Source: Oceanisphaera profunda (lineage in GTDB: Bacteria > Pseudomonadota > Gammaproteobacteria > Enterobacterales > Aeromonadaceae). Taken from it: DNA of 64,000 nucleotides. The notes under the pieces were generated by a model. That model saw only the letters and a list, made by a program, of their open reading frames with translations. It made no database searches and had not been told where the DNA came from. The DNA lies in assembly GCF_002157895.1 (NCBI RefSeq), contig NZ_CP021377.1:2852001-2916000 (forward strand), written 5' to 3'. The translations under genes were made by a program, and so were the position numbers. Numbering within the stretch: position 1 is the first letter of the stretch; each line of letters opens with the position of its first letter. Positions 4,211 through 62,982 of the stretch are shown here, in pieces.

Positions 4211-4859
4211 AATCAAGGACGCTAAGTAGACTGTGCAAGGTAGCGCAGCCCTTGAGCGGCCGTCCTGACACACGTCAAGATCTCGCCGAAAGCCGTCATC
4301 CTGACGCACGTCAGGATCTTGTTTTGGGTTTTAGTACTAAGAGCGAGATACCGTGGCGAGCACGGTATGACGGCAGTAGGGCTGTGTCTGCTGTGTTTTT
4401 AGCCGTCATCCTGACGCCGGTTAGGATCTGATGTGGTGTTTTGTAGGCGAACACTTGTTCTCGCATTTCGCCGTAGGCGGAAATATTTAAGTCACTTCAG
4501 AATCTAGTCCTTAAAACAGAGGAGCAAGACGGCATAGAAGGGTGTTTTTTGTAGCTGCCACTTTAGTCGGCAGGCCAGCGTAGCTGGATGATTTTTATTC
4601 ATGCTCAGCAGAAGCCGCAGCCAAAGCACAAGGCGATAGAATATCGGTGTTTGTCTGCCATTCGTACTTTCAATTTTCTTTGCGAAAGTCAGGAGCGAGT
4701 ACGGCTTGTTTTTGACCTTGTAGGTGCAAATTTATTCAGCACGGTTTGGAACTTAGCTATCCACAGCTGTTATGGTGGACTGCTTTATAGCGGTTTTATG
4801 AGGGGATTTTTATGATAACGATTTAACGTGGATGGCTCGATAGCCTTATAAACTGTGTA
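4211..4859. repeat. Repeat-filled intergenic region
   Basis: Contains a complete palindromic element at 4292-4374, a half copy at about 4400-4430, a GTAGGCGAAC-type hairpin near 4444, and a two-hairpin repeat at 4545-4596 (stem CTGCC/GGCAG, then CCAGC-GTA-GCTGG). The part 4600-4859 shows no gene I can support; the 75-codon frame at 4588 has no family features. Confidence 0.65.
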
Positions 4860-5123
4860 TCATTGATAAATATCTCTACGATGACCAATCGTAACAGCTA
4901 CAATAACTAACTCCGTATCTCTGATTTCACAAATGACTCTATAATCACCCACTCTATAACGCCAATATTCACGCAGGTTACCGGTTAACGCTTTCCCTGT
5001 AGTTCGAGGGTCGGCTAGCACCATTATCCGTCGTAGATACTTAGTAATTCGCTGTGCTTCAGTATGGCCTATTTTAGCCAACTGCTTTTTAGCGGAACTG
5101 GTAAGTTCAACTGTCCAAACCAA
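4860..5123 (-). CDS. RelE/ParE-superfamily toxin (StbE-like)
   Basis: A small toxin of the RelE/ParE fold, which in this superfamily either cleaves ribosome-bound mRNA or poisons gyrase. The core reads TSSAKKQLAKIG, then GKALTGNLREYWRYRVGDYR and IGHRRDIYQ at the C-terminus, the usual order of helices, beta sheet and basic C-terminal strand. The reading frame is open to an ATG at 5141, but that would overlap the antitoxin by 35 bases; a TTG at 5123 (product LVWTVELTSS, 87 residues) lies 7 bases after a ggag on the minus strand and fits family N-termini better. The gene follows the antitoxin with a short overlap, the standard arrangement. Which activity it has cannot be told from sequence. Confidence 0.8.
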   Translation of the reverse strand: MVWTVELTSSAKKQLAKIGHTEAQRITKYLRRIMVLADPRTTGKALTGNLREYWRYRVGDYRVICEIRDTELVIVAVTIGHRRDIYQ

Positions 5124-5334
5124 GTTCACGCTCCACATCATCTAAAGAATAAAGCTCTTCTTTACCTTGGCGAACTCGCTCCATCACGCTGTCGGCTAAG
5201 TAGTAATCTTCCAAGTCATCAAGCCCATTTTCTATAAGCTCACGCAAGTAGAATGACTTTGAACGTCCAGTTTCTAATGCTAACTGGTTAAGACGTAACT
5301 CAATGTCTTTAGGCAACCTAATTGAAGTTGACAT
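5107..5334 (-). CDS. Ribbon-helix-helix antitoxin (RelB/StbD-like)
   Basis: The 75-residue product begins MSTSIRLPKDIELRLNQLA, a ribbon-helix-helix DNA-binding strand and helix, followed by TGRSKSFYLRELI (second helix) and an acidic tail (SLDDVERELGLDS) that would wrap and neutralise the toxin encoded next. The start at 5334 is preferred over the ATG at 5340 because ggggag ends immediately before 5340 but sits 6 bases before 5334. A near-perfect 22-bp palindrome lies just upstream and is the likely autoregulatory operator. Together with the downstream gene this forms a complete type II toxin-antitoxin pair. Confidence 0.82.
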   Translation of the reverse strand: MSTSIRLPKDIELRLNQLALETGRSKSFYLRELIENGLDDLEDYYLADSVMERVRQGKEELYSLDDVERELGLDS

Positions 5335-5347
5335 CACCATCTCCCCG

Positions 5348-5369
5348 TTTGTATTTCATGTAATACAAA
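5348..5369 (-). promoter_or_regulatory. Palindromic operator of the toxin-antitoxin pair
   Basis: TTTGTATT (5348-5355) mirrors AATACAAA (5362-5369) around a short centre; 20 of 22 positions are symmetric. It lies 13 bases upstream of the antitoxin start, where ribbon-helix-helix antitoxins normally bind. A TACTAT-like -10 sequence lies next to it on the minus strand. Operator function is inferred from symmetry and position. Confidence 0.55.
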
Positions 5370-6307
5370 TAGTACATTAGTTACTTCTACTGAGCCAGTC
5401 TGTATGATTATTCGTCACCATGCACATTGCTAATGATGAAAATAAACTCTGGTTTTCGGCTCTTTTAGCCGAGGTACGGCAAGATGTTGCATGGTACGGT
5501 GTTTTTTGTTTAGCCGTCATCCTGACGCACGTCAGGATCTCGTATTAGTTTTTTGCCCTATGCCGTCATCCTGACGTACGTCAGGATCTTGTTTTGTAGG
5601 CGAACGCTTGCTCTCGCATTACTTAAAGCCCTAAACACCTTTGCAACGGAATCCACAGAACCCGCAGAAAAATAGGGATCAGATCTGAAAGAGATCTTGA
5701 TGGATAAGTATTTAACAACGGGTGGCTCGCCTGCCCCGTTAGATGCTTTAAACCCAGATCTGCCACGGAATACACGGAACCCACGGAAAAATTAAGACGG
5801 GATGAAGGGCGAAAAATGATCTTGATGATACCTGATTACCCACAAAGCTCAGCCATGTTCCAGAGAGCTAAACACCAATTAATTCAATATGTTACATGGA
5901 GGTTCCGCCTCTTCGGTAAAGAATGTGAGGCCCAGTTTGGTATTTTGACCTTGTAGGGGCACGTCTCAGCGGCCCGGTTTGGTGTTTTGGTTTAAATCTA
6001 AACCTCAGTAACAGCCAGCAGAGCTGGCCTGCCGAAGTCCTCTTTATTAAAGAGACGGGGCAGCTACAAAGAACAAACCGAAACAGGGTGCATTATGGCT
6101 GAGGTTCATACGTAATCAGGTGGTACTAAGAGCGAGATACCGTGGCGAGCACGGTATGACGGCAGTAGGGCGAGGTCTGTTGTATGTCTAGCCGTCATCC
6201 TGACGCACGTCAGGATCTCGCTTGGTTTTTAGGGATAAGAGTAGATATCCAAGCTGATCCGACACTGTGACAGAAGTATTTTTTGTAGATACTCAATTCA
6301 GGTCGGC
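5370..6307. repeat. Repeat-filled intergenic region
   Basis: Holds palindromic half-elements near 5514-5541 and 5562-5590, CCACGGAATACACGG-type repeats near 5642 and 5762, the 290-bp MITE-like element at 5831-6120, then a right half-element at 6123-6163 and a left half-element at 6190-6222. No gene supported. Confidence 0.7.
5831..6120. mobile_element. 290-bp MITE-like element, copy A
   Basis: Begins CCTGATTAC and ends GTAATCAGG; the outer 26 bases form an imperfect terminal inverted repeat (21 of 26 match, including CTCAGCCAT inside). It has no coding capacity. A second copy of exactly the same length lies at 62211-62500 in opposite orientation, and one end recurs at 29362-29423. I see no clear target duplication. 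Internally it carries hairpin modules of the two-hairpin repeat family, some of which differ from those in copy B. Confidence 0.7.
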
Positions 6308-7468
6308 TCACTTTGGCGCAAGGCATGATAGCAAATGCATGAGTATCTGCTGCTTATCAGCCATCACTTCTGTAGTTAGTGCTTGCTGTATTTGTGCTGC
6401 TACTAGCCCCATCGCCTGCTCGCACTCATCATATAAAGCATTCGCCTGTGCTTGAGTTAATTCACAATGCTGTACGCCAAAAGTTAGCAAATGCTTACGC
6501 GACCACCATTTACGGCTACCCATTAAAGTCAATGCAGACACATCATTTTTAATATAAGCCGTAGTGCTAACCACATCAAAAGCGGGTGCTAGCCAGATGT
6601 TATGAATGTTTTCATACAGTAGGCCAAAGTTTTTTAAATGTGCATCACCATTTTGTAAGTGATTATTCAGCACCATCATCTTAAAAAACTGCTGCAGTGC
6701 TGCGATTTTGTGTTGTGGAGAAACAAAACTGGTGATGCTTTTAGCTAACTGTTCATAGCTACCCTCGTACTTTTGCTTGCGACTTTTGGCGGCTAATACG
6801 CACATATCCTCAAATCCTAGCCATTGCCCAGTCGATGTAAAATCAAAGCGTTTCATAATAAAAAGAGCGCTATCGTCGGACAAATAAAATTCAGGCACAG
6901 TAATGCCTGCGGCTTTTAATACCCGCATACACCAATATTCATTCAGTGCTAACTGTGGATAATCTGGGCCCCAGGCCTTAACAATGTAATCCTCCATGCG
7001 CAACGTGGCTTTATCTTGGATCTGTGCCAACACCTTGGGCTGCACACCACTTACAGGCGAGTGCAAAGCAAAGCGTACTACCAACTCATCAAATAGCCCG
7101 GCAGTAGGGGACAGTAAGTCTGTAAGCTCCAAGGGCTGAACGGCTTCAATATCTACTTGATAATGCACCCGCCCGCGTACGCTAGGCGCTAACAACTTAA
7201 GCAAGCTCAAGTCATCAGCACCGCTGAGCTTGGCAAAGTGACGTTGCAACACCGATAGTAAATAACCCTCGGGCAAATGCATCTCAAAAAGTGGGGGTAA
7301 TGCGGAATGTGAATAATCTCGGCTGCGCACGGGCATGGTTAACGAGACAAAATTTTGCACAGTCATATCAGGTTCATAACGAAATACAAACTCGCCTTGC
7401 TCACTAAACAGCTCACCGGCAGCTTGCCCTGCTATCCATACTGACAAAGGATTATTATTAACGGCCAT
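6308..7468 (-). CDS. hipA: HipA-family serine/threonine kinase toxin
   Basis: HipA kinases phosphorylate a tRNA synthetase (GltX in E. coli), halting translation and promoting persistence. The 386-residue product has the N-terminal HipA domain (LSVWIAGQAAGELF), the autophosphorylation loop PVSGVQPK with Ser140, the catalytic NGDAHLKNFG (Asp275, Asn280) and the metal-binding APAFDVV (Asp298), so all key residues are present. It is shorter than E. coli HipA (440). Start: the ATG at 7468 has gagga upstream and matches HipA N-termini; an ATG at 7507 would place 13 extra residues inside hipB. It overlaps hipB by 11 bases, indicating translational coupling. Confidence 0.9.
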   Translation of the reverse strand: MAVNNNPLSVWIAGQAAGELFSEQGEFVFRYEPDMTVQNFVSLTMPVRSRDYSHSALPPLFEMHLPEGYLLSVLQRHFAKLSGADDLSLLKLLAPSVRGRVHYQVDIEAVQPLELTDLLSPTAGLFDELVVRFALHSPVSGVQPKVLAQIQDKATLRMEDYIVKAWGPDYPQLALNEYWCMRVLKAAGITVPEFYLSDDSALFIMKRFDFTSTGQWLGFEDMCVLAAKSRKQKYEGSYEQLAKSITSFVSPQHKIAALQQFFKMMVLNNHLQNGDAHLKNFGLLYENIHNIWLAPAFDVVSTTAYIKNDVSALTLMGSRKWWSRKHLLTFGVQHCELTQAQANALYDECEQAMGLVAAQIQQALTTEVMADKQQILMHLLSCLAPK

Positions 7469-7700
7469 CGCGTAGTTCCTCGAAAGTAGGGAAGGGCGAT
7501 TTTTCACGAAGTGATATTTCAGAGCCCAAATAATCTAGCATTTTCATCACCTTTCTCAGGCCTACGTCTCCCGAACGGCCCAGTTCAAATGCATTCAAAG
7601 TGGTGCGTGAAATGGCCAAATGATCAGCCATCTGTTGCTGTGATACTTTCTGCTGCAGGCGCAGCTCACGGACTGCTTGGCCCAATTCTAAATACGTCAT
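7458..7700 (-). CDS. hipB: HipB-like XRE-family antitoxin/repressor
   Basis: A short XRE helix-turn-helix protein: VSQQQMADHLAISRTTLNAFELGRSGDVGLRKVMKMLDYLG is the Cro/C1-type HTH followed by the dimer helices. In HipBA systems this protein both neutralises HipA and represses the operon. Start: ATG at 7700 (MTYLELGQAV, 80 residues) fits HipB N-termini; an in-frame ATG at 7721 would add MWSILYI and cannot be excluded. The 14-bp arms of an inverted repeat flank the promoter region and may be its operator. hipA follows with an 11-base overlap. Confidence 0.88.
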   Translation of the reverse strand: MTYLELGQAVRELRLQQKVSQQQMADHLAISRTTLNAFELGRSGDVGLRKVMKMLDYLGSEISLREKSPFPTFEELRDGR

Positions 7701-7702
7701 AA

Positions 7703-7760
7703 TGTACAGAATACTCCACATATATTCATTTACACTGGGTATTGTAGAGTATTTTGTACA
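7703..7760 (-). promoter_or_regulatory. Probable HipB operator: two 14-bp inverted arms
   Basis: TGTACAGAATACTC (7703-7716) and GAGTATTTTGTACA (7747-7760) are reverse complements at 13 of 14 positions, separated by 30 bases spanning the expected hipBA promoter. Each arm is itself partly symmetric (GTA-N5-TAC), so it may hold two HipB dimers, analogous to the multiple operators in E. coli hipBA. Inference from symmetry and position. Confidence 0.55.
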
Positions 7761-8355
7761 GTTGTGAGAGGGGTTTTATCATTTGTTAAGCACATCAAAC
7801 TGTTTTTCGCTGTCATCCTGACGCACGTCAGGATCTCGCTTTGGTGTTTTGGTACTAAGAGCGAGATACCGTGGCCGTCATGCTGAACTTGATTCAGTAA
7901 CGGTATGACGGCCGTAGGGCTGTGTCTGCTGTATGTCTAGCCGTCATCCTGACGAAAGTCAGGATCTGATTTGGTGTTTTGGTACTAAGAGCGAGATACC
8001 GTGGCCGTCATGCTGAACTTGATTCAGTACCGGTATGACGGCAGTAGGGCTGTGTCTGCTGTATGTCTAGCCGTCATCCTGACGAAAGTCAGGATCTCGC
8101 TGTTAGTGTTGGTGACTTCAGCTTGGTGCTTGGCGCAGGACGCTGGTTTTTCATTCAACATTCAACATTCAACATTCAACATTCAACATTCAACATTCAA
8201 CACTCAACACTCAACATCGCTCTTCCCCCTAAAGCTCTCCGCTTTGCTGCCGATACTCATTTGTAACTAGAGGGCAGAACACCGGTCGGTGGGCGGTTGA
8301 GCACTTGCATTTAGGCAGCTGGTTAAGCAAGCAGCAAAAAAACCAAAAAAAACCT
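7761..8355. repeat. Nested palindromic repeats and a heptamer array upstream of fliC
   Basis: Contains palindromic elements at about 7808-7916, 7941-8042 and a half copy at 8064-8100. In the first two, the hairpin that is normally accgtg-gcgag-cacggt is interrupted by a second hairpin sequence (ctgaacttgattcag), a nested arrangement. It is followed by nine tandem heptamers at 8153-8215 (seven ATTCAAC, two ACTCAAC). No gene supported. Confidence 0.7.
8153..8215 (+). repeat. Tandem heptamer array (ATTCAAC)7(ACTCAAC)2
   Basis: Nine uninterrupted 7-base units counted directly. The same unit recurs at 18551-18599 and in degenerate form near 13846-13925, 29094-29160, 29309-29352 and 30444-30475. 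It is too short and unspaced to be a CRISPR array. Confidence 0.9.
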
Positions 8356-8382: not shown

Positions 8383-8482
8383 CTTAATTAACAACGAAGC
8401 AGCTTCATCTTAAAGCTCAGCTTCATTACCAACACCGCATACCGGCATGGCGCCGGAACAAATCTCAACGGAGAGTTTAATT

Positions 8483-13369: not shown

Positions 13370-14140
13370 TGTCTAAAAATAAAAGACATTTTCGCAACGG
13401 AATCCGCAGACCCCACGGAAAAATTAAGATGAGATAAGGGCGAAAAATGATCTTGTTGAGGTTAAAACAGCCGTCTTCCTGACGCACGTCAGGATCTGAT
13501 TTTGGGTTTTAGTGCTAAGAGCGAGATACAGTGGCGGGCTCGGTATGACGGCATAGAGATAGCGCCGGTCCAGCGTAGCTGGATAGGTTACACACAAACC
13601 TGAAACAAAACCGTGGCGAAGTCCTCTTCACCGAAGAGACGGCCACCTACAAGAGATGCAGTACCCTGTAGCTGCCAATTTATTCGGCAGTCCAGCGTAG
13701 CTGGATGGTTTTCAAGATTTTCGCCTGCGGCGAAATGCGAGAGCAAGCGTTCGCCTACAAAACACCGATCTTGTAGCCCGCAACTTGTTCGCGGGTCCTG
13801 CGAAGCAGGATGGTTTTCAGGTTTACACCTACAAAGCCACAGTGTTGAGTTGTGAGTGTTGAATGTAGAGTGAAAAGCTTAACTCAACACTTAAAACTTA
13901 AAACTAAAAACTAAAAACTCAACACCCACCCCGGAGTTCCGCCTGGGTTGTAATGCGAGAGCAAGCGTTCGCCTACAAAACACCGATCTTGTAGCCTGAG
14001 CTACTTTTTTAGATCTTACCCCATTAAATTTTTCAGATTTGATCTCTATTTTTCCGTGCTTTTCCGTGACTCTCGTAACAAGGAAGCGTTGCAAAAGGGT
14101 TTTGGTGTAGTTGGTTGGAATACGGCTAAGTGAGTTATTC
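13370..14140. repeat. Repeat mosaic between fliS and the abi gene
   Basis: Contains a CCACGGAATACACGG-type repeat near 13393, a complete palindromic element at 13472-13552, a GAAGTCCTCTT-tipped hairpin at 13611-13653, two-hairpin repeats at 13666-13712 and 13771-13817, GGCGAACGCTTG-type hairpins (minus orientation) near 13725-13768 and 13945-13980, and degenerate heptamers at 13846-13925. No gene supported; the 80-codon frame at 13613 is repeat translation. Confidence 0.75.
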
Positions 14141-15076: not shown

Positions 15077-15087
15077 CTTACGCCCTC

Positions 15088-17169: not shown

Positions 17170-17319
17170 AAGAAGCGCCGAGCGCCCGGCGCCAAGCACC
17201 AAGCTAAACACTAAATCTAAACCTGTTTTTTGCCACGGAATACACGGACAAGCCGCAAGTGTTGAGTTAAGTTGGAATGGCCCCGAATAAGTAGACACTT
17301 CTTCAGAGTGAGGAAGTGT

Positions 17320-17643
17320 ATGCAATACCGAACCAAACGTAAATTTAGTAATGAATTTAAGCGGGAAGCCGTTAAACTCTCTGTTTCATCACCTAAAACA
17401 TTAGCTGAAATCTCCAGTGAGCTGGGGGTGCATCCGAACGTATTAAGCCGTTGGCGTCGAGAGTGGATAATGGACAAACCAGATTCGAAACAGGATAAGC
17501 CCGTTAAAAATGAAGGGCCAGATAAAAGCCTGCGTCAGTTAGAGCAAGAGAATAAGCGTCTTAAGAAAAAGCTAGAGCGCGCTGAACTGGAGCTCGATAT
17601 CTTAAAAAAGCTGGAAGAGTACGCTACCAAGACACGGCGATAA
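17320..17643 (+). CDS. IS3-family OrfA (copy 1)
   Basis: A 107-residue DNA-binding subunit: FSNEFKREAVKLS and VHPNVLSRWRREW form the HTH, followed by a leucine-zipper region (LRQLEQENKRLKKKLERAEL). Start at ATG 17320 (MQYRTKRKF). The A6G heptamer at 17604-17610 (reading TTA AAA AAG) is a classic -1 slippery site; slippage continues as RYQDTAIKFAFIDRYRSMSW into orfB, giving the OrfAB transposase. Confidence 0.92.
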   Translation: MQYRTKRKFSNEFKREAVKLSVSSPKTLAEISSELGVHPNVLSRWRREWIMDKPDSKQDKPVKNEGPDKSLRQLEQENKRLKKKLERAELELDILKKLEEYATKTRR

Positions 17644-17672
17644 AATTTGCCTTCATCGACCGGTATCGCAGC

Positions 17673-18512
17673 ATGAGCTGGACGGTACTGGTGATGTGTC
17701 GCGTACTCCAGGTATCTCGTGCGGGTTATTATTGTTGGAAGCAGCGCCAACGAGAGCCTTCGGTTCAGGCGGAGCGTCATCGCAGTCTGCTCGCCTTTTT
17801 ATTGGCTGAAGCTGAACAGCAACATGGTATTGCGGGTTATCGGAAATTGTGGCGCGAAGCGGTTGACCAAGGCTTTGCTTGTGGTAAGAATCAAGTGCAA
17901 CGCCTATTACAGAGTGTGGGCTACCGTTCTTGTGTCGCGCCAAAGCCCGGGCATCGTAAACATAAGCCAGGCATCGCTGCGACGCCGAATCTGTTAAACC
18001 GACAGTTTACGGTTGCAGAAGAGAACCGTGTTTGGGTGTCAGATATAACTCAAATACGCTGTGAAGAAGGCTGGCTCTATCTGGCGGTGATAATCGATCT
18101 TGCTACCAGACAGATAGTGGGCAAGGCTCAAGGGCCGGTTAATAGTGCTGAATTAGTGATTAAGGCCTTAAAGCAGGCTTGGAAGAAGCAGAAGCCTGAT
18201 GGCCGTGAGCTGATGTTCCACTCAGACCAGGGCAGCCAATATCATTGTCTGGCGACCATGACGTGGTTGAATAAACGTAAAGTGACTATCAGCATGTCTC
18301 GCCGGGGAAACTGCTGGGATAATGCGTGTTCAGAAAGCTTTTTTGCTTTACTGAAAAAGGAATGGACCCGCCGTTTAGGGCTGTTAACTCGTAAAGAGAT
18401 GGCAGAAGAAATACACTTCTACATCACGCAGTATTACCACAAAGTAAGACAACACACTGCGCTGGGAGGATTAACCCCCAACGCATATGCGCAGCAACTT
18501 AATGCTGCTTAA
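17673..18512 (+). CDS. IS3-family transposase OrfB (copy 1)
   Basis: Catalytic part of the transposase, with an rve-type integrase core. The DDE triad is visible as WVSDITQIR, FHSDQGSQY and SESFFALLKKE. The N-terminal region (CRVLQVSRAGYYCW, HGIAGYRKLW) is the HTH_21-type segment of IS3 OrfB. The frame lies at -1 to orfA and is open upstream of the ATG through the slippery site, so the functional product is probably the OrfAB fusion. Intact. Confidence 0.93.
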   Translation: MSWTVLVMCRVLQVSRAGYYCWKQRQREPSVQAERHRSLLAFLLAEAEQQHGIAGYRKLWREAVDQGFACGKNQVQRLLQSVGYRSCVAPKPGHRKHKPGIAATPNLLNRQFTVAEENRVWVSDITQIRCEEGWLYLAVIIDLATRQIVGKAQGPVNSAELVIKALKQAWKKQKPDGRELMFHSDQGSQYHCLATMTWLNKRKVTISMSRRGNCWDNACSESFFALLKKEWTRRLGLLTRKEMAEEIHFYITQYYHKVRQHTALGGLTPNAYAQQLNAA

Positions 18513-18542: not shown

Positions 18543-19075
18543 CGTTTTTCACTCAACACTCAACACTCAACACTCAACATTCAACATTCAACATTCAACA
18601 TTCACAATTCAACACTGTGGCTTTGTAGGTGTAAACTTGAAACCATCCTGCTTCGCAGGACCCGCGAACAAGTTGCGGGCTACAAGAGCCTGTGGTTGTA
18701 GGCGAACGCTTGCTCTCGCATTACGCCGAAGGCGTAACCTATTGATAGTCCGACACCTAAATCTAAAGCTACTTTGCTAGGCAAAACCGGCCGGCGGTCG
18801 CGGCCTCAAGTTATATCAATCCCAGTAAAAAGGCACCGCACTTGTAGTCCCACGCTTTAGGAATTGATGCTCACCATTTCAGCCTACTGCGAATATTCAC
18901 TGGATATTCGATTAAACTGGAATGATTCGTCACGGCGAGACGAGCTCCCCCCTGCGAAGCTGGATGATCTAAAATATTCCCGCTGAGACGGGAGTGCCAG
19001 CTAAAGCGGCACACTACAAAAGACAGTGTCTCTTTACCTCCTCACGCCTCACTCTTTACCCCTCACGGGGCAGGC
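18543..19075. repeat. Repeat mosaic between IS copy 1 and flrB
   Basis: Seven tandem heptamers at 18551-18599 (four ACTCAAC, three ATTCAAC), a two-hairpin repeat in minus orientation at 18619-18686, and a GGCGAACGCTTG-type hairpin near 18696-18740. 18780-19075 holds degenerate pieces only. No gene supported. Confidence 0.7.
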
Positions 19076-19125: not shown

Positions 19126-20205
19126 ATGCTTAATGACACGATAGTGCCTAATGAGTCGACAGCTGTGCTGCCGGAAACCTTGAGTATGGCCGCCTTAGTT
19201 AATGCCATACCCAGTGGCGTGGTGTGGCTGGATGGCCGTGGGCGGGTGGCGTTAGTGAATCCGGCGGCGCAAAGACTCTTGGCTGCATCGTTGGGTGAGC
19301 CGTTACAAAATAAGCCGCTATTAGGCGAAGCTTGGTCGGCAGTAATTGAGCGGGTGTTTGCGCCGCAGCCGGACGATGGACTGCAAGTTTCGCTTAAAGA
19401 TGGTCGGCGTATTCAGTTGGCTATTTCTCATATTGAAGGCCAGCCTGGCCAGTTAATTCAGCTTACCGACCTTACGCCCACTCGTGCTTGGGTAGCGCAG
19501 CAAAGCCATGCCCAACGCTTAGCGGCACTGGGGCAGATGGCCGCCACACTGGCACACCAAATTCGCACGCCTTTATCTGCCGCCATGCTTTATGGTGCCA
19601 ATTTAGCGTCCCCGCAGTTAACAGAAAGCCAGCGGGTGCAGTTTCAGCAGCGCTTAATCGACCGGCTTAATGATATTGAGCGTCAAATAAGCGACATCTT
19701 ATTATTCGCTAAACCCGAGCAAGCGCCATTAGCAGATACTTTGGCGCTAAGTGAGTTATTGCCTGAATGCGTAGAGGCTGCAACAGCTTTGTTAGCCGCT
19801 CAAGGCGCGACCTTAACGCTTGTTCAGCAAGACATTACCTCAAGCCAAGTGTTGGGTAATCGCCACGCCCTAAAAGGCATAGTACTGAACTTATTAGAAA
19901 ACGCCGTTGATGCAGGAGCGACTGAGTTGCGCCTTGAGTTGTTAATGGCAGGCAATGAGCTAGAAATTCGACTGCAAGATAACGGTAAAGGCATGGCGCC
20001 AAGCGTGCTGAAAAATATCTTCACGCCGTTTTTTACCACCCGCAGCCAAGGCACGGGTTTAGGGTTGGCGGCAGTGAGCGCAGTAATGCGCGCCCATCAA
20101 GGACGAGTATCCGTGCAATCGGTGTTAGGTGAAGGCAGCTGTTTCAGTTTGTGGTTACCGAAAATTGAAAATAAGCAGCGAACTAAAAGACAAAGCACCC
20201 TGTAG
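19126..20205 (+). CDS. flrB: Flagellar sensor histidine kinase FlrB/FleS
   Basis: Cytosolic histidine kinase that phosphorylates FlrC. The 359-residue product has an N-terminal PAS-like domain (ALVNAIPSGVVWLDGRGRVA), a dimerisation domain with H-box LAHQIRTPL (His144), and an ATPase domain with N-box LLENAVDAGA, G1 DNGKGMAPS and G2 TGLGLAAV. No membrane segments. Start: ATG at 19126; the frame is open from a TTG at 19114, and neither has a strong ribosome site. flrB and flrC normally abut or overlap, but here 224 bases of repeat separate them. Confidence 0.9.
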   Translation: MLNDTIVPNESTAVLPETLSMAALVNAIPSGVVWLDGRGRVALVNPAAQRLLAASLGEPLQNKPLLGEAWSAVIERVFAPQPDDGLQVSLKDGRRIQLAISHIEGQPGQLIQLTDLTPTRAWVAQQSHAQRLAALGQMAATLAHQIRTPLSAAMLYGANLASPQLTESQRVQFQQRLIDRLNDIERQISDILLFAKPEQAPLADTLALSELLPECVEAATALLAAQGATLTLVQQDITSSQVLGNRHALKGIVLNLLENAVDAGATELRLELLMAGNELEIRLQDNGKGMAPSVLKNIFTPFFTTRSQGTGLGLAAVSAVMRAHQGRVSVQSVLGEGSCFSLWLPKIENKQRTKRQSTL

Positions 20206-20429
20206 CCGCCAATTCATTCGGCGGGCCAGCGTAGCTGGATGTTTTTAAACAGCAAGCCAAACCGTGCCGAATAAATTGGCACACTACAAAAGAAAAACTT
20301 TTATCATTATGATTTTTGCTCCTCGTCCGTGTATTCCGTGGCAAAAATAGATTTATGTTTGGCTCTGTATTGAGTGTTATCTCGTCCGCTTTACACTTCA
20401 CCCTTTACAGAATTAAGGAACCATATTTC
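20206..20429. repeat. Repeats inserted between flrB and flrC
   Basis: A two-hairpin repeat at 20201-20246 (CCGCC/GGCGG then CCAGC-GTA-GCTGG), a TGCC-gaataaatt-GGCA hairpin at 20267-20284 and a reverse CCACGGAATACACGG-type repeat near 20325-20343 fill a junction that is close to zero length in relatives. Confidence 0.7.
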
Positions 20430-21863: not shown

Positions 21864-22311
21864 CAAACCAGCGCCGAGCTTTAAAAACTTTCTTTGCCAC
21901 GGAATACACGGAACAACACAGAAAAATAATGTGAAGGGGAAAAGATAGCGCCTAGCATAACAACCTCGGGATCTTGCACGTAGCACTAAAGCCAAGGGCG
22001 AGATCCTGACGTGCGTCAGGAAGACGGCTTAAAACACAAACACCGTATGTTGTTGGTTTTGTATCTCTTTGCCGTCTTGCCGGGCTTGACCCGGTATCTC
22101 GCACTTAGTACTAAAGCCAAGGGCGAGATCCTGACATGCGTCAGGAAGACGGCTTAAAGCACAAACACCGCTCTGGTCCTGTGCCGTCTTGCCGATACTG
22201 AATCAAGTTCAGCATGACGGCCACGGTATCTCGCACTTAGTACAAAAGCTAACAGCGAGATCCTGACGTGCGTCAGGAAGACGGCTTAAAACACAAGCAC
22301 CGTTCTGGTCT
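21864..22311. repeat. Palindromic elements (minus orientation) between flrC and IS copy 2
   Basis: A CCACGGAATACACGG-type repeat near 21896, then at about 21975-22290 at least three units of the palindromic element family in reverse orientation (gcgagatcctgacgtgcg ... agacggc). IS copy 2 is inserted directly after. No gene supported. Confidence 0.7.
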
Positions 22312-22358
22312 TGGAATGGCCCCGAATAAGTAGACACTTCTTCAGAGTGAGGAAGTGT

Positions 22359-22682
22359 ATGCAATACCGAACCAAACGTAAATTTAGTAATGAATTTAAG
22401 CGGGAAGCCGTTAAACTCTCTGTTTCATCACCTAAAACATTAGCTGACATCTCCAGTGAGCTGGGGGTGCATCCGAACGTATTAAGCCGTTGGCGTCGAG
22501 AGTGGATAATGGACAAACCAGATTCGAAACAGGATAAGCCCGTTAAAAATGAAGGGCCAGATAAAAGCCTTCGTCAGTTAGAGCAAGAGAATAAGCGTCT
22601 TAAGAAAAAGCTAGAGCGCGCTGAACTGGAGCTCGATATCTTAAAAAAGCTGGAAGAGTACGCTACCAAGACACGGCGATAA
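22359..22682 (+). CDS. IS3-family OrfA (copy 2)
   Basis: 107 residues, identical to the copy 1 OrfA except for one Glu-to-Asp change (LADISSELG). Retains the HTH, leucine-zipper region and the A6G slippery heptamer at 22643-22649. Confidence 0.92.
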   Translation: MQYRTKRKFSNEFKREAVKLSVSSPKTLADISSELGVHPNVLSRWRREWIMDKPDSKQDKPVKNEGPDKSLRQLEQENKRLKKKLERAELELDILKKLEEYATKTRR

Positions 22683-22711
22683 AATTTGCCTTCATCGACC
22701 GGTATCGCAGC

Positions 22712-23551
22712 ATGAGCTGGACGGTACTGGTGATGTGTCGCGTACTCCAGGTATCTCGTGCGGGTTTTTATTGTTGGAAGCAGCGCCAACGAGAGCCTTC
22801 GGTTCAGGCGGAGCGTCATCGCAGTTTGCTCGCCTTTTTATTGGCTGAAGCTGAACAGCAACATGGTATTGCGGGTTATCGGAAATTGTGGCGCGAAGCG
22901 GTTGACCAAGGCTTTGCTTGTGGTAAGAATCAAGTGCAACGCCTATTACAGAGTGTGGGCTACCGTTCTTGTGTCGCGCCTAAGCCTGGGCATCGTAAAC
23001 ATAAGCCAGGCATCGCTGCGACGCCGAATCTGTTAAACCGACAGTTTACGGTTGCAGAAGAGAACCGTGTTTGGGTGTCAGATATAACTCAAATACGCTG
23101 TGAAGAAGGCTGGCTCTATCTGGCGGTGATAATCGATCTTGCTACCAGACAGGTAGTGGGCAAGGCTCAAGGGCCGGTTAATAGTGCTGAATTAGTGATT
23201 AAGGCCTTAAAGCAGGCTTGGAAGAAGCAGAAGCCTGATGGCCGAGAGCTGATGTTCCACTCAGACCAGGGCAGCCAATATCATTGTATGGCGACCATGA
23301 CGTGGTTGAATAAACGTAAAGTGACTATCAGCATGTCTCGCCGGGGAAACTGCTGGGATAATGCGTGTTCAGAAAGCTTTTTTGCTTTACTGAAAAAGGA
23401 ATGGACCCGTCGTTTAGGGCTGTTAACTCGTAAAGAGATGGCAGAAGAAATACACTTCTACATCACGCAGTATTACCACAAAGTAAGACAACACACTGCG
23501 CTGGGAGGATTAACCCCCAACGCATATGCGCAGCAACTTAATGCTGCTTAA
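22712..23551 (+). CDS. IS3-family transposase OrfB (copy 2)
   Basis: Intact DDE transposase, almost identical to copy 1 OrfB; changes are Tyr to Phe (SRAGFYCW), Ile to Val (RQVVGK) and Leu to Met (YHCMATM). Catalytic motifs SDITQ, HSDQGSQY and ESFFALLKKE are retained, so the element could still be active. Confidence 0.93.
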   Translation: MSWTVLVMCRVLQVSRAGFYCWKQRQREPSVQAERHRSLLAFLLAEAEQQHGIAGYRKLWREAVDQGFACGKNQVQRLLQSVGYRSCVAPKPGHRKHKPGIAATPNLLNRQFTVAEENRVWVSDITQIRCEEGWLYLAVIIDLATRQVVGKAQGPVNSAELVIKALKQAWKKQKPDGRELMFHSDQGSQYHCMATMTWLNKRKVTISMSRRGNCWDNACSESFFALLKKEWTRRLGLLTRKEMAEEIHFYITQYYHKVRQHTALGGLTPNAYAQQLNAA

Positions 23552-29058: not shown

Positions 29059-29635
29059 TAGAGAGGGAGGGTAAAGGCGGAACTCACGGGCGAGTGTTGT
29101 GTTTTTAGTTATAAGTGTTGAGTTAAGTGCTTTCACTCAGCATTCAATACTCACAACTCAGCACTGTGGCTTTGTAGGTGTAAACCTGAAAACCATCCTG
29201 CTTCGCAGGACCCGCGAACAAGTTGCGGGCTACAAGAGACCTGTGGCTTTGTAGGCGAACGCTTGCTCTCGCATTACGCCGCAGGCGGAACTTACGGGCG
29301 AGTGTTGGGTTTGAGTGTTGAGTTAAGCTTTTCATCCAACATTCAACACTGTGGCTTTACCGGCAGCTACAAAGAACAGACCAAAACAGGGTGCATTATG
29401 GTTGAAGTTCATACGTAATCAGGTATTGGTAAGAGCCAGCAAAGACGTTAGAGGATGGTAATTAGGTTGTCCTCTTCACGCTTCACCCTTAACAGATTTT
29501 ATTCAGATCTGATCACTCTTTTTCCGTGTTCTTCCGTGTTCTTCCGTGTATTCCGTGGCAAAAAGGGATTTAGGTTTGGTGTTATGTTTCCGCTTCACTC
29601 TCTACATTTCACTCAGTTGGGCGAGACCCTAAGCC
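29059..29635. repeat. Repeats inserted between fliI and fliJ
   Basis: Degenerate heptamers at 29094-29160 and 29309-29352; a two-hairpin repeat in minus orientation at 29170-29237; a GGCGAACGCTTG-type hairpin at 29250-29290; one end of the 290-bp MITE-like element at 29362-29423; reverse CCACGGAATACACGG-type repeats with a duplicated ttccgtgttc unit at 29519-29562. No gene or clear promoter for fliJ. Confidence 0.75.
29362..29423. mobile_element. Truncated copy of the 290-bp MITE-like element
   Basis: Matches the last 62 bases of copy A (5831-6120) with a few changes, ending GTAATCAGG. The other end is absent. Confidence 0.65.
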
Positions 29636-30076: not shown

Positions 30077-30500
30077 CAGCCAGCGCCCTAGCGTAGCTGG
30101 ATGGTTTTAGATCCAAACCTAAACCGTGCCTCATACTCTTTGCCTACGAGATGCCACAAAAGGCACAAAATAAACCGGCCCGAATAAATTGGGCCCTACA
30201 AAAGACGGGTGTCCTGTAGCCGCCCCTTGTTTGTAGATAGAGAGTTTCGGCGGGCCAGCGTAGCTGGATAGTTTAAAGCTCACATCAAGAACCAAACCGT
30301 GCCGAATAAATTGGCACACTACAAAAGACACAGAGCAAACCGTGGCGAAGTTCTTTTCACCGAAGAGGCGGCCACCTTGTATGTTTAAGTGTTGCTGCGC
30401 AAAATCGGCCTCTACAAAAACCAAAAAATCGCTCCTGTTTTCATTCAACATTAAAAACTAAGCATTCAACATTGTTGCAGCGTAGCGCTGCCTTTACATC
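30077..30500. repeat. Repeats inserted between fliJ and fliK
   Basis: Hairpins of the two-hairpin family at 30177-30205 (GGCCC-gaataaattg-GGCCC type), 30211-30272 (a CCGCC/GGCGG stem with an unusually long tip), 30298-30325 (TGCC-gaataaatt-GGCA) and 30345-30380 (GAAGTTCTTTT-tipped), then degenerate heptamers at 30444-30475. No gene supported. Confidence 0.7.
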
Positions 30501-36042: not shown

Positions 36043-36831
36043 GTGAATTTTTCCACTGATCAAATATTGCTGTGGCTGGCTAGCTACTTATGGCCGCTGT
36101 GCCGGATCGCCGGCATGATGATGACCATGGTGATGTTTGGTGCCAACCTCACGCCTATGTTTAACCGCCTGTTGCTGGCGGTGGCCATTACCATAGCGGT
36201 CGCTCCTGTATTGCCGGTGATGCCGGATGTGGCGCTGTTCTCTATTGGTGGCTTTTTGATCACCGCCCAGCAGGTGCTGATTGGCGCGGCAATTGGCTTA
36301 CTCTCGCAGTTTTTAGTGCAATCTTTCGTGACCGGCGGCCAAGTGATTGCCATGCAAACCAGTTTGGGTTTTGCCTCCATGGTAGATCCACTTAACGGCC
36401 AGTCTACGCCGGTAGTCGGTCAGCTGTATTTGATGTTGGGCACCTTGCTGTTTTTAGCGCTCAATGGCCATTTGGTGATGATTGAAGCCATAGTGATGAG
36501 CTTTGAAACGTTGCCCGTGTCTATGAGTGGTATTAGCGTGGCCAGTTGGCAGCAATTGGCTGGGCTGCTGACGATGCTGTTTTATGCTGCGGTGGCCATG
36601 TCGTTGTCAGCAATCGTGGCTATGCTTTTGATTAACTTCACTTTTGGCATTATGACCCGTGCCGCACCCCAGCTGAATATTTTTAGTATTGGTTTTGCGG
36701 TGAGCATGGTGTGTGGCTTATTTATTTTATGGCTGACGCTAGGTGGCTTCTTGGGCCACTTTGAAAACCAGTGGCAGCGCATCCAATTGGTGATCTGCGA
36801 TACCTTGCTGCTTACCTGCGAAGGAGGCTAA
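36043..36831 (+). CDS. fliR: Flagellar export gate protein FliR
   Basis: Completes the FliP5Q4R1 gate. The 262-residue product has six membrane segments and the signature QMDxxLGF-like stretch (AMQTSLGFASMVDPLNGQST). Start is GTG at 36043 with aagga at 36033-36037. flhB begins directly after its stop codon. Confidence 0.93.
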   Translation: MNFSTDQILLWLASYLWPLCRIAGMMMTMVMFGANLTPMFNRLLLAVAITIAVAPVLPVMPDVALFSIGGFLITAQQVLIGAAIGLLSQFLVQSFVTGGQVIAMQTSLGFASMVDPLNGQSTPVVGQLYLMLGTLLFLALNGHLVMIEAIVMSFETLPVSMSGISVASWQQLAGLLTMLFYAAVAMSLSAIVAMLLINFTFGIMTRAAPQLNIFSIGFAVSMVCGLFILWLTLGGFLGHFENQWQRIQLVICDTLLLTCEGG

Positions 36832-37977: not shown

Positions 37978-38245
37978 AGGCAGCGGTAAGCGCCTTTTTT
38001 GCCGTCATCCTGATGCCCATCAGGATCTTGTCTTAAACCATCCAGCTGCGCAGGCCCGGCTAAAGGCTTTGTAGGCGGCAATTTATTCGCCGCGGTTTTA
38101 TGTTAGCTTTAAAAACCGCCAGCTGCGCTGGCCCGGCGAAGTCCTCTTTACCAAAGAGACGGCCGGCTACGCGTACGGCGTTTTTTTGTTTGGCTCAATT
38201 CTTGCATGTTTATAGCTATCTCTCTTTAGTGACAAGTTAGTGGTA
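37978..38245. repeat. Repeats and promoter region between flhB and flhA
   Basis: A half palindromic element at 37998-38031 with a CCTGATG-ccc-ATCAGG variant, a GGCGGC-aatttattc-GCCGC hairpin near 38070-38092, and a two-hairpin unit in minus orientation at about 38112-38170 whose main stem is tipped by the GAAGTCCTCTT sequence. A sigma54 promoter follows. Confidence 0.7.
38191..38207 (+). promoter_or_regulatory. Sigma54 promoter of the flhA operon
   Basis: TGGCTCAATTCTTGCAT, with GG and GC spaced by 10 bases. It lies 39 bases before the flhA start and would drive flhA-flhF-flhG-fliA. Confidence 0.85.
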
Positions 38246-53160: not shown

Positions 53161-54118
53161 TTTAAAAACAGCTGATAGCGCCGAGCGCCCAGCACCTAGC
53201 TTAAGACCAACACCGAGCCCTGCGCTCGGTGTTTTGCTTTGTGGCTAATGTGAATGGTGAGAGCAATGTTGAATGCTTAATTTTGAATTTTTAATTAAAT
53301 AAATAGAACGGCCCCGTTCGATAAATATAAACAGTGTAAAGCCGTGCCTCATACTCTTTACCTACAACATGCCACCTACAAAAGACGTACCTTGTAGCCC
53401 GCAACTTGTTTGCGGGGCCAGCGTAGCTGGATGGTCTTAAAATCTAAAAACCAAAACAAACCGTGGCTCATACTCTTTACCTACAACATGCCACCTACAA
53501 AAGACGTACCTCGTAGCCCGCAACTTGTTCGCGGGGCCAGCGTAGCTGGCGGGTTTAAAGATTTACGCCTGCGGCCTAATGCGAGAACAAGCTCCTGCGT
53601 GGAGGTGTGCTGTTCGGTCAACGCTCTGCGATCGGCTTGTGGCTTCCACGCCGTAGCGTGGGAAAAGGCCGTGGCTAAGGGTAGAACTTGTGCGCCAGAT
53701 CCTGCTGCGCAGGATTTCGCGGCTGAAGCATGGGACTACATTCGTGCAGTAAGTGAATATCCCTCCGTTGCTTCAAACGCGTATGTAGGCGCTGCCACAT
53801 CCCCACTCCGATGTTTCGTATACCGCCGTATTGTTATCTTCATGCGGTAGCTAATGTCGGTTCGTACACTAGAACCTGCGTTGCAGGTTTTAGCTGCGCG
53901 ATATCTTTGCTTCGCTGTTTTATGTGTTGCTCCATTTCCTTAAAGCTGGATTAAGATCAATGCATTAACAAGGTTATCGGTATCACGCTTCTTGCTTTAT
54001 CACGTGGTTTCTTTCTGCATATATCAGTGCTCTGTGCTAAACTGGCGGCCATTTTTAATGGTCTATGTTGTTGCTGGCGAAGCTCGCCACATACGGTTGC
54101 CACAAATGGTTGTCAATT
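53161..54118. repeat. Repeat mosaic between DUF2802 gene and ccmA
   Basis: After the terminator, two direct repeats of about 90 bp (53342-53431 and 53461-53550) each combine a GTGGC/GCCAC-type hairpin with tip tcatactctttacc and a two-hairpin unit (CCCGC/GCGGG then CCAGC-GTA-GCTGG). 53560-53860 holds further palindromic pieces (for example cctgctgcgcagg). The 146-codon frame at 53410 is repeat translation. The ccmA promoter is not identified. Confidence 0.7.
53209..53235 (+). terminator. Rho-independent terminator after the chemotaxis operon
   Basis: AACACCGAGC (53209-53218) pairs with GCTCGGTGTT (53224-53233), followed by TT; 48 bases after the DUF2802 stop. Confidence 0.75.
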
Positions 54119-59593: not shown

Positions 59594-59597
59594 AGCC

Positions 59598-60065: not shown

Positions 60066-60066
60066 T

Positions 60067-61278: not shown

Positions 61279-61307
61279 TTGTTAGCCTTTGCAGGCTATT
61301 TACTGAT

Positions 61308-61332
61308 AAAACCGGCCCCTGTGGCCGGTTTT
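61308..61332 (+). terminator. Rho-independent terminator after the ccm operon
   Basis: AAAACCGGCC (61308-61317) pairs with GGCCGGTTTT (61323-61332) around a 5-base loop, 29 bases past ccmI. Confidence 0.8.
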
Positions 61333-61374
61333 GCACGATAATAAGATAACCACACCGCGATAAGGCAATCATAT

Positions 61375-62172
61375 ATGTGGCAAAAAATTCTAATCATCTC
61401 CAGTCTGCTGCTGGCAGGGTGTGCGGCTCAAGACTCAAACGGGGAAACGCAGCCGTTAGTCACCAAAGATGCTTTTAATGACTACAAGCCGATAGATGGT
61501 GCGACCTCCACGGCCGATGACGCTCGTGACCCCTTCGAGCCTGTTAACCGCTTGTCTTGGGTGATTAACTACGATGTGTTGGACCCCTATTTAGTGCGCC
61601 CAGCAGCCCATGCTTATGCGGGTTATGTAGCGGTGCCGATACGGGAAAGCGTGCAAAATGCGGTGCTTAATCTTGAAGAGCCCGCCAGCTTTGTAAACCA
61701 CCTGATCACCGGTGATGTACAAGGGGCGGGCACAAATCTGGTGCGCTTTGGCATTAACAGCACTGTGGGTGTGTTGGGCTTTTTTGATGTAGCAGAAAAA
61801 ATGACCTTGTCGCGTCGCAGCAAAGACTTTAGCCAAGTATTGGGGCAAATGGGCGTGGGCAATGGGCCATTTTTAATGGTCCCCCTCTACGGGCCCACCA
61901 CCTTGCGTGAGTTATCGGGCGATTTCGTTGATGGTTTATATTTCCCCTACGACTTGATGACCTTTGGCATGCGCGCCGGAAAATTTGTTCTCAATGGCTT
62001 GTATGAGCGCAGTGAGCTGATTGACCGTGAGCCTATTATTGATAATGCCCTCGACCCGTACGGCTTAACCAAAGATCTGTATTTACAGTATCAAGATGCC
62101 AAAATCGGCAAAGAGACCGTCACCGACTTGGATGAAGGCCTAGCAGACTTTATGGATGAGATAGACGGCTAA
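61375..62172 (+). CDS. mlaA: Phospholipid-retention lipoprotein MlaA (VacJ)
   Basis: Outer-membrane lipoprotein that removes misplaced phospholipids with OmpC/OmpF and the Mla pathway. The 265-residue product has a lipobox (LLLAGC, Cys16), the MlaA core (DPFEPVNRLSWVINYDVLDP; NLEEPASFVNHLITGDVQGA; VPLYGPTTLRELSGDFVD) and an acidic C-terminus. aagg precedes the ATG. Confidence 0.95.
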   Translation: MWQKILIISSLLLAGCAAQDSNGETQPLVTKDAFNDYKPIDGATSTADDARDPFEPVNRLSWVINYDVLDPYLVRPAAHAYAGYVAVPIRESVQNAVLNLEEPASFVNHLITGDVQGAGTNLVRFGINSTVGVLGFFDVAEKMTLSRRSKDFSQVLGQMGVGNGPFLMVPLYGPTTLRELSGDFVDGLYFPYDLMTFGMRAGKFVLNGLYERSELIDREPIIDNALDPYGLTKDLYLQYQDAKIGKETVTDLDEGLADFMDEIDG

Positions 62173-62982
62173 GCCAAAGCGGGTAGCTAAAAGTAAAACC
62201 CAAAGAGCCACCTGATTACGTATGAACCTCAGCCATAATGCACCCTGTTTCGGTTTGTTCTTTGTAGCTGTCCAATTTATTCGGCAGGCCAGCTCTGCTG
62301 GCTGTTACTGAGGTTTAGATTTAAACCAAAACACCAAACCGGGCCGAAGTCCTCTTCGCCGAAGAGACGGGCCCCTACAAGGTCAAAATACCAAACTGAG
62401 CCTCATATTCTTTACCGAAGAGCCGGCATCTCCCTGTAACCTATTAAATTCATTGGTGCTGAGTTCACTGAAACATGGCTGAGCTTTGTGGGTAATCAGG
62501 AAGCGCCATAAGAGTGTTGAGTTAAAGCTCAACACTCTTCATATCACATCCTACACGCTACACCTCAGCCCCCACACTCTTGGACTTGTACTAGTCCGCC
62601 GAGACATACCGCTCGCGCTCTATAAATGCCTTCATCAGCTTGTAATAAATGAGCCAGACTGTCGGATAGCTTCCCCTAGATTACGTATTTGGCTGGCATA
62701 ATTTTACCTATATTGTCCGACTGCGTTCCGCAGATCCTACTACCATTAAGCTGTTCTACAAAAATATGCACTAGTCAGCTATCTCTAACGCTGCACCACA
62801 GTCGGCAAGTTACTGCGTTTATTCATTACCTTGGAGAAAATCCAAGCAGCCAGCTCGGTGACCGCCGCCATAGATGACCATGTATAGATGCGAAGATGAA
62901 AAAGGGCCTCCTTGGGTTTTTGGGGCATATCTTGTGACTTATCAATGGTGAGCCAAGCCTGACTAAATATAAGGACATGTCG
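62173..62982. repeat. Intergenic region with MITE-like copy B
   Basis: Copy B of the 290-bp element (62211-62500), then a perfect hairpin AAGAGTGTTGAG/CTCAACACTCTT at 62510-62539 built from the heptamer unit. 62540-62970 shows no gene I can support; the small open frames there have no family features. Confidence 0.65.
62211..62500. mobile_element. 290-bp MITE-like element, copy B (inverted relative to copy A)
   Basis: Starts CCTGATTAC and ends GTAATCAGG; matches copy A (5831-6120) in reverse complement over its whole length. It keeps the GAAGTCCTCTT-tipped hairpin in one slot where copy A has lost it, and has a gaataaattg-type tip in another slot where copy A carries GAAGTCCTCTT. Confidence 0.75.

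What the first reader, a model, noticed from the sequence alone, without database searches (positions are those of the whole stretch)
4545..62303. Dispersed two-hairpin repeats with constant flanks and interchangeable hairpin tips
Seen at 4545-4596, 13666-13712, 13771-13817, 18619-18686 (minus), 20201-20246, 29170-29237 (minus), 30211-30272, 38112-38170 (minus), 53393-53438, 53512-53554 and inside 62211-62500. Each has a 5' flank TTGTAG, a first hairpin with a variable G/C stem, a second hairpin (CCAGC-GTA-GCTGG, CCTGC-GAA-GCAGG or CCAGC-TCT-GCTGG), and often a 3' flank ATGGTTTT. The first hairpin's tip comes from a small set: aatttattc, aacttgttc, gaagtcctctt..aagagac, tcatactctttacc. Stems change in a compensated way (CTGCC/GGCAG versus CCGCC/GGCGG versus CCCGC/GCGGG). 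Inference: tips are swapped as modules, by recombination or by an element-encoded process, while pairing is maintained.
Basis: partly seen in the sequence, partly recalled or inferred. Interest (0 to 1): 0.72.

Follow-up and report, generated by a model that had tools for sequence, protein, structure and literature searches.

The report
Mobile DNA hairpins with exchangeable tips
These repeats are a family of short mobile bacterial DNA hairpins (REP/REPIN elements) tied to a transposase gene elsewhere in the genome; the kind is known, but here some hairpin tips can be seen to have been exchanged while the paired stems were kept.

Summary
The repeats are GTAG-type REP units, many in inverted pairs (REPINs). 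A REP-associated tyrosine transposase (RAYT) gene lies elsewhere in the same genome, flanked by the same units with three tip types.

About 1.06 Mb of the 3.51 Mb genome holds 106 fully paired units (reversed control: 1). Stems covary: 99 of 106 are perfectly complementary, against about 12 when 3' arms are shuffled. Units carrying the second hairpin begin GTAG-C (55 of 55); the other main kind, followed by GGTTT, begins GTAG-G (36 of 36). Nearly all tips end in TTC.

Tip exchange was tested. Of 16 reliably matched orthologous units in a congener whose RAYT is 97% identical, 7 are identical in stem and tip, 6 carry smaller changes and 3 have a replaced tip. Copies of a ~290-bp MITE-like element that contains a REPIN show all four short/long tip combinations; on a weakly resolved flank tree the two tips change 7 and 6 times, the maximum possible.

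Compensated stems and coexisting loop types are published for REPs, so this is a known kind. Recurrent tip exchange, a one-sided second hairpin, and bulged REPs beside a RAYT with group-3 motifs make it a variant. What swaps the tips is inferred, not shown.

The parts
4551..4587 (+). two-hairpin REP unit (stem CTGCC, tip ACTTTAGTC, second hairpin CCAGCGTAGCTGG)
6015..6067 (-). two-hairpin unit with a long tip, inside the second window copy of the MITE-like element
5831..6123 (-). MITE-like ~290-bp element (ends CCTGATTAC/GTAATCAGG) with an internal REPIN; its right-arm tip is truncated
13613..13650 (-). single-hairpin unit, stem GTGGC, long tip
13668..13704 (+). two-hairpin unit, stem CTGCC, tip AATTTATTC
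13773..13809 (+). two-hairpin unit, stem CCCGC, tip AACTTGTTC
18647..18683 (-). two-hairpin unit, stem CCCGC, tip AACTTGTTC (identical orthologue in G014)
20202..20287 (+). REPIN: two-hairpin unit (CCGCC, AATTCATTC) on + and inverted single-hairpin unit (GTGCC, AATTTATTC) on -
29197..29233 (-). two-hairpin unit, stem CCCGC, tip AACTTGTTC
30177..30199 (-). single-hairpin unit, stem GGCCC, tip AATTTATTC
30216..30322 (+). REPIN: two-hairpin unit with AGAGAGTTTC-class tip on + and inverted GTGCC unit on -
38071..38170 (-). REPIN: single-hairpin unit (GCGGC, AATTTATTC) on +, two-hairpin unit (CCGGC, long tip) on -; the long tip is a different one at the orthologous G014 locus
53394..53498 (+). REPIN: two-hairpin unit (CCCGC, AACTTGTTT) on +, inverted unit (GTGGC, ..GGTAAAGAGTATGA tip) on -
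53513..53549 (+). two-hairpin unit, stem CCCGC, tip AACTTGTTC
62208..62500 (+). MITE-like ~290-bp element with internal REPIN (62264-62378: short left tip, long right tip)

Best explanation
The repeats are GTAG-type REP units, many paired as REPINs or BIMEs, and are most likely the non-autonomous partners of a RAYT encoded at G000:C1:86129-86575. In single-stranded DNA each unit is GTAG, a 5-bp lower stem, an unpaired base or TTC on the 3' side, and an upper hairpin or loop (the tip). One kind of unit carries an extra small hairpin next to its stem. The RAYT most likely reads GTAG and the foot or bulge of the folded strand, so selection keeps the lower stem paired and the TTC in place while tip sequence is tolerated. 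Tips have been replaced more than once at fixed positions while the stems mostly stayed, most likely by short-tract recombination or replication template switching between REP copies that share the stem and neighbouring sequence. Shown: element type, RAYT linkage, covariation, the two kinds of unit, tip replacement at orthologous and paralogous positions. Inferred: RAYT specificity, mobility, and the exchange mechanism.
For: RAYT: NCBIfam NF047646 equivalog, 152.5 bits against cut-off 80; PDB 4er8 TnpArep E 2.5e-7; flanked on both sides by these units with tips AACTTGTTC, AATTTATTC and CGTCTCTT... The congener G014 has a 97% identical RAYT, flanked likewise, and 193 pattern hits. Covariation: 99 of 106 perfect over 18 stems against a shuffled mean of 12. 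Within 9-nt tips of both genomes, positions 3 and 6 are T-A in 99, C-G in 45 and T-G in 1 of 145. TTC ends 46 of 49 tip-blind units here and 42 of 42 in G014. First stem base by kind: 55/55 and 36/36 here, 79/79 and 74/74 in G014. Tip exchange: 3 of 16 reliable orthologous pairs; all four tip combinations in MITE-like copies, tip changes 7 and 6 on the flank tree against 1-4 for seven flank SNPs. Literature: in E. coli the loop and upper-stem sequence are not read while GTAG, the bulge and two lower-stem bases are (PMC8266576, passages); complementary stem variants and several loop types within one REP family (PMC3733652; PMC2817692).
Against: Motifs place this RAYT in group 3 (subclass 2.5). 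For the two group-3 enzymes tested in PMC8266576 single loop positions matter and a stem mismatch harms cleavage; one of them, Mb, reads a TTTA loop like the core of the commonest tip here. So tip indifference cannot simply be carried over from E. coli, where removing the upper stem-loop altogether also abolished binding. Stem and tip are associated in the two-hairpin units. The flank tree is weakly resolved (2 of 17 inner branches well supported), and the SNPs it is compared with built it. Of the three replaced tips, 2848246 lies in a tandem array with a same-class neighbour and its G014 copy has one stem mismatch; 2890170 swaps one long tip for another (13 of 24 positions differ) with a changed 5' stem beside a repeated array. 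Only 2931647 is clean. 21 of 37 orthologous pairs had flanks too poor to use. No inner pairs are predicted for the two 9-nt tips folded.
Confidence: 0.76

Rival explanations
1. No exchange: each stem/tip combination is an old separate lineage of REPs that spread on its own, and orthologous differences come from independent insertion of different units.
For: Stem and tip are associated in two-hairpin units. At several loci whole units differ between species.
Against: At 2931647 and 2848246 the 5' stem and 35-nt flanks on both sides (0.91/0.94 and 0.94/0.94) stay while the tip is another class. MITE-like copies with flanks 96.9% identical carry different tips.
Confidence: 0.1
2. Tips change by ordinary homologous recombination or gene conversion among REPIN/MITE copies; nothing is special about the tip.
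For: Copies of ~290 bp are 81-99% identical in their flanks, which would allow recombination. At 2848246 the second hairpin and one stem base differ as well. Gene conversion of REPs appears as a 1988 review title in reference lists (not read).
Against: Tips change more often on the flank tree than each of seven flank SNPs, and left and right tips ~60 bp apart are nearly unlinked (r2 0.04), so tracts would have to be short.
Confidence: 0.45
3. The exchange is element-driven: RAYT cleavage and strand transfer, or polymerase template switching at the folded hairpin, replaces tips as cassettes.
For: Exchange mostly bounded by the stem. CT within 6 nt 5' of GTAG, the cleavage dinucleotide reported for RAYTs, in 43 of 49 and 35 of 42 units (cleavage data PMC8266576).
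Against: Reported RAYT cuts lie outside the hairpin, which would move whole units, not tips. The upstream CT is part of the repeat. No intermediate was seen.
Confidence: 0.3
4. The hairpins are mainly RNA devices (terminators or mRNA ends) kept for the host.
For: They lie between genes, and the five stretches folded (as DNA) were more stable than most shuffles (0 to 14 of 200 as stable).
Against: No Rfam match; the GTAG foot, RAYT linkage and species-specific abundance fit mobile REPs. Transcripts were not examined.
Confidence: 0.1

Closest known systems
GTAG REPs of Di Nocera et al. 2013 (PMC3733652; abstract, the first three of eight text parts, and passages seen)
   Same: GTAG next to a palindrome, inverted dimers, intergenic, alternative complementary stem bases, several loop lengths in one family (GTAG-3, GTAG-14), small hairpins at dimer-spacer ends, RAYT genes flanked by the repeats
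   Different: No listed family was matched by sequence here (its Figure 1 is not held). Here the kind with the second hairpin starts GTAG-C and the other GTAG-G, and tip exchange is seen at orthologous loci.
REPINs of Pseudomonas fluorescens SBW25 (PMC3116915; passages seen)
   Same: Two inverted REPs with a spacer that folds as one hairpin; compensatory changes noted; RAYT link
   Different: SBW25 REPINs are described as symmetrical with invariant 16-bp ends; here the two arms differ and stems and tips vary widely.
E. coli y/z1/z2 REPs with TnpAREP, group 2 (PMC8266576; passages seen)
   Same: GTAG, lower stem, bulge, upper stem-loop; types with different stem lengths and loops coexist
   Different: The RAYT here has group-3 motifs (DHLH, WQ, YIIANP), not those tabulated for subclass 2.2 (PMC6006769).
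REPs flanking RAYTs of some congeners
   Same: In L160, L162 and L169 the same AAT-TT-ATT (or TC) core, in GTAG-GGTCGAAT-TT-ATTCGACC
   Different: Perfect 8-bp palindromes, typical of group 3; here the core sits on a 5-bp stem with one unpaired C, or is replaced by a longer tip.

Membership tests
GTAG-type REP | GTAG directly 5' of a palindrome | tested here: met
   106 fully paired units in 1.064 Mb, reversed control 1
GTAG-type REP | many copies, extragenic | tested here: met
   116 copies of one tip pattern in the genome; 19 of 19 window units outside hand-picked main ORFs. Position relative to genes was checked in the window only
GTAG-type REP | cognate RAYT gene flanked by the same repeats | tested here: met
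REPIN/BIME | inverted doublets with GTAG ends outward that can fold together | tested here: met
   pairs at 20202/20287, 30216/30322, 38071/38170, 53394/53498, 62264/62378; one of them folded: 38066-38175 forms one branched hairpin, z -3.6
REPIN/BIME | mobilised by the RAYT | not testable with these tools
   needs a cleavage or copy-number experiment; two array extensions (123 and 106 bp) were seen in G014
RAYT group 3 (subclass 2.5) | motifs DH[LF]H, WQ, YI[VI]ANP | tested here: met
   PDHLHW, LWQ, YIIANP read by eye in the protein against the table in PMC6006769; no tree made
RAYT group 3 (subclass 2.5) | cognate REPs short and mostly perfect palindromes | tested here: not met
   5-bp stem, then an imperfect tip of 9-10 or 22-25 nt with an unpaired 3' base or TTC; perfect in some congeners. 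The paper's table says 'short, few long' for this subclass
RAYT group 2 (subclass 2.2) | motifs WE, YIHYNP | tested here: not met
   protein has WQ and YIIANP
Rfam RNA families | match at gathering score | tested here: not met
   0 matches in the window

The most novel reading that the evidence does not exclude
The hairpin tip is a swappable cassette: an element-linked process (RAYT strand transfer or template switching on the folded strand) replaces tips between REP copies much faster than stems or flanks change, and the RAYT, though of group 3 by its motifs, has adapted to read a bulge (TTC) instead of a loop, which frees the tip.
Probability: 0.2. Interest if true: 0.65.

Novelty: new variant of a known kind. 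Interest (0 to 1): 0.42.

Why it matters
REP elements are common small repeats in bacteria, yet how their hairpins diversify and how RAYTs read them is little known. Here two related species with near-identical RAYTs show tip exchange at fixed loci, so recognition (stem foot and bulge against tip) and exchange mechanism become directly testable. It also gives a natural contrast between perfect-palindrome REPs in congeners and bulged REPs in this lineage.

Tried and rejected
Rfam gave nothing. A tip-blind scan for single-hairpin units was useless: as many hits in reversed sequence (80 real against 106 control, fully paired), so single-hairpin counts rest on the tip-class script, whose classes allow mismatches and are thus partly built in; the TTC statement is therefore taken from the tip-blind list. 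A search for clean empty sites found two array extensions only. Of 37 orthologous pairs, 21 were dropped for poor 35-nt flanks. One pair labelled a tip-class change (144501) is a single-base change and is not counted as an exchange. At 2689773 another G014 unit matched the flanks better (1.89 against 1.74), so that pair is uncertain. 2684362 was flagged but is explained by a tandem duplication and is among the 21 dropped. For the MITE-like element 24 of 62 matching places were full length by my cut; 4 of the 24 were dropped from the tree as another subtype, and tip states were entered by hand; one truncated right tip (own_2857831m) was counted as long, where the script had called it short. 'Free combination' of stem and tip was rejected for two-hairpin units. 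No structure prediction and no RAYT tree were run.
Full report
What is there. The unit is GTAG, a 5-bp stem, a tip, the 3' stem, and then a second 13-nt hairpin such as CCAGCGTAGCTGG. Anchoring only on the second hairpin and GTAG, and leaving the tip open, gives 49 fully paired units in 864 kb against 2 in reversed sequence. Their tips are 9-10 nt (31 units) or 23-25 nt (18 units), and 46 of 49 end in TTC; in 400 kb of the congener G014, 42 of 42 do. The window also holds single-hairpin units in inverted orientation, giving the pairs 20202/20287, 30216/30322, 38071/38170, 53394/53498 and 62264/62378. Other window units stand without a recognised partner.

What it is. These are GTAG-type REP units, many arranged as REPINs. 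The genome has a RAYT gene at C1:86129-86575 (NCBIfam REP_Tyr_transpos, 152.5 bits, cut-off 80; nearest solved structure 4er8, TnpArep). It is flanked by the same units: on the plus strand CCCGC-aacttgttc, CCGCC-long tip, CCGCC-aatttattc and CCCGC-aacttgttc, on the minus strand GTGGC, GCAGC and GTGGC with aatttattc. A second RAYT (69% identical) is flanked by another GTAG repeat (GTAGGCGAACGCTTGCTCTCGC and variants) that also occurs in the window. A third is split in two frames.

Numbers. In 1.064 Mb of the genome (50 fetched stretches plus the window) a tip-class script found 106 fully paired units (reversed control 1), and in 0.98 Mb of G014 it found 164 (control 0). Of the 106, 99 are perfectly complementary over 18 different stems; dealing the 3' arms out at random gives 12 on average and at most 26 in 1000 trials. 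In G014 it is 157 of 164 over 23 stems, against 14.6 and at most 28. Units with the second hairpin begin GTAG-C in 55 of 55 and 79 of 79 cases; units followed by GGTTT begin GTAG-G in 36 of 36 and 74 of 74. Fifteen of the 106 and 11 of the 164 had neither mark, have mixed first bases, and are left out of that rule. In 9-nt tips of both genomes positions 3 and 6 are T-A (99), C-G (45) or T-G (1), which points to pairing inside the small tip. Long 24-nt tips keep their inner pairs in 21 to 27 of 27 distinct sequences per pair, with few changes on both sides. Folded alone as DNA, four of four units show the lower stem and the second hairpin; inner pairing of the tip is predicted for one long tip, not for two 9-nt tips nor for the tip at 30216. 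Folded as a whole, the REPIN at 38066-38175 forms one branched hairpin in which the two units' stems pair partly with each other instead.

Distribution. The tip pattern occurs in 31 of 41 genomes searched, but outside the genus almost always at the level of the reversed control; one genome of another family has 18 hits against 0. Within the genus 21 of 23 genomes, this one included, have at least one hit, from 1 to 193; the listed places (a capped list that did not reach G014) mostly bear the stem GGTCG, a perfect palindrome.

Do tips exchange? Stem and tip combine widely but not freely: for two-hairpin units mutual information is 0.72 bits (shuffled mean 0.33; 0 of 2000 as high), in G014 0.49 (0.22; 0 of 2000); for single-hairpin units the link is weak (0.55 against 0.38, 87 of 2000; G014 0.35 against 0.29, 305 of 2000). 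The congener G014 has a 97% identical RAYT, and syntenic blocks are mostly 90-96% identical. Of 37 aligned orthologous unit pairs, 16 have both 35-nt flanks at 0.75 or better: 7 are identical in stem and tip (one differs in the second hairpin), 5 differ by changes within the same kind of tip (one base in four, five bases at 144310), 1 by one stem base, and 3 have a replaced tip. The clearest is 2931647 (stem CCGTC/GACGG in both species, tips aagtgtatataaacagagagtttc and aacttgttc; the second hairpin differs by one base). At 2848246 (tips aatttattc and acttgtttttatgcagagggtttc, flanks 0.94 and 0.94) one 3' stem base and the second hairpin also differ, in a tandem array. The third, window 38133-38170, has one long tip for another (13 of 24 positions differ) and also differs in its 5' stem.

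A second test uses copies of a ~290-bp MITE-like element (ends CCTGATTAC and GTAATCAGG) that contains a REPIN; window copies lie at 62208-62500 and 5831-6123. Twenty-four of 62 matching places in the fetched stretches of both genomes were full length. Short and long tips occur in all four left/right combinations. On a tree of 229 flank columns from 20 copies (4 of another subtype dropped; by hand labels 10 long/long, 4 short/long, 3 long/short, 3 short/short) the left tip needs 7 changes and the right 6, the maxima possible; shuffled labels give 6.0 and 5.3 on average, and seven flank SNPs of like frequency need 1-4. The tree is weak (2 of 17 inner branches well supported) and was built from those SNPs, so this comparison is indicative.

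How it most likely works. In E. coli the RAYT needs GTAG, an unpaired bulge and two lower-stem bases, while loop and upper-stem sequence can be changed, though removing them abolishes binding (PMC8266576, passages). The same logic would explain this family: the conserved parts are GTAG, pairing of the lower stem and TTC; the varying part is the tip. The stem varies with compensation, so base identity there seems to matter little beyond the first base, which goes with the kind of unit. However, the RAYT motifs (DHLH, WQ, YIIANP) are those tabulated for group 3 (PMC6006769), whose REPs are mostly short perfect palindromes and whose tested members do read loop bases; RAYT-flanking REPs in four congener loci (L160, L161, L162, L169) are perfect palindromes. 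This lineage therefore seems to have moved from a perfect palindrome to a bulged one, after which tips could diversify. That step is inference. What exchanges the tips is open: short-tract gene conversion, template switching at the hairpin, or a RAYT reaction.

Known or new. Compensated stem variants, several loop formats in one family, dimers of units with different loops, and small hairpins in dimer spacers are all described (PMC3733652, three of eight text parts seen, and passages); preserved palindromes despite mutation and BIMEs at RAYT genes are in PMC2817692 (passages); switches of REP class at orthologous RAYTs are in PMC3686654 (passages). Searches for REP+RAYT+GTAG, REPIN+RAYT+loop+recombination, REP+gene conversion+BIME, REP+template switching, and RAYT or TnpAREP with three genus names listed no title on tip exchange between REP copies; only the passages named were read, and a 1988 review on REP gene conversion appears in reference lists but was not read. 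I file this as a new variant of a known kind.

Changes on checking: the joint confidence was lowered from 0.78 to 0.76, because only one of the three tip replacements is clean and the fold of a whole REPIN does not show the separate stems.

Noticed in passing
window 2908-8103, 13453-13511, 35548-38034: 17 copies in one family of GCCGTCATCCTGACG..CGTCAGGATCT, which fit the CGTC-tagged REP superfamily of PMC3733652 (CGTC, then an 8-bp stem starting AT and a 4-nt loop). Many stand near a second repeat, GAGCGAGATACCGTGGCGAGCACGGTATGACGGC.
   Followed up: partly
window 4438, 5591, 18693, 29246, 35706: A second GTAG repeat, TTGTAGGCGAACGCTTGCTCTCGCATT or close variants, like those that flank the second RAYT gene (L001); some lie next to units of this finding.
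   Followed up: partly
window 17272-18512 and 22311-23551: Two copies, 99% identical over the 300 nt compared, each with ORFs of 123 and 279 aa; they look like an IS3-type insertion sequence (recalled, not tested) near flagellar genes.
   Followed up: no
window 8132-8230, 18544-18614: Tandem runs of the heptamer ATTCAAC (CATTCAACATTCAACA..), the second beside a REP unit.
   Followed up: no
window 5640, 10542, 14031, 15451, 21893, 29501, 35786, 35920: Another dispersed repeat family, TTCCGTGTATTCCGTGGCAA / TTTGCCACGGAATACACGGAA.
   Followed up: no
G000:C1:997486-997937 (L171, L174): A third RAYT reading is split between two frames, so it is probably inactive.
   Followed up: no
L156, L158, L159, L163: RAYTs of other congeners have yet other GTAG hairpins nearby (for example GCGCCG-ctttagc-CGGCGC in L158), so REP class differs between species around related RAYTs.
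   Followed up: partly
window 6308-7507 (-): A HipA-like gene (Pfam HipA_C and Couple_hipA) lies between repeat-rich intergenic stretches.
   Followed up: no
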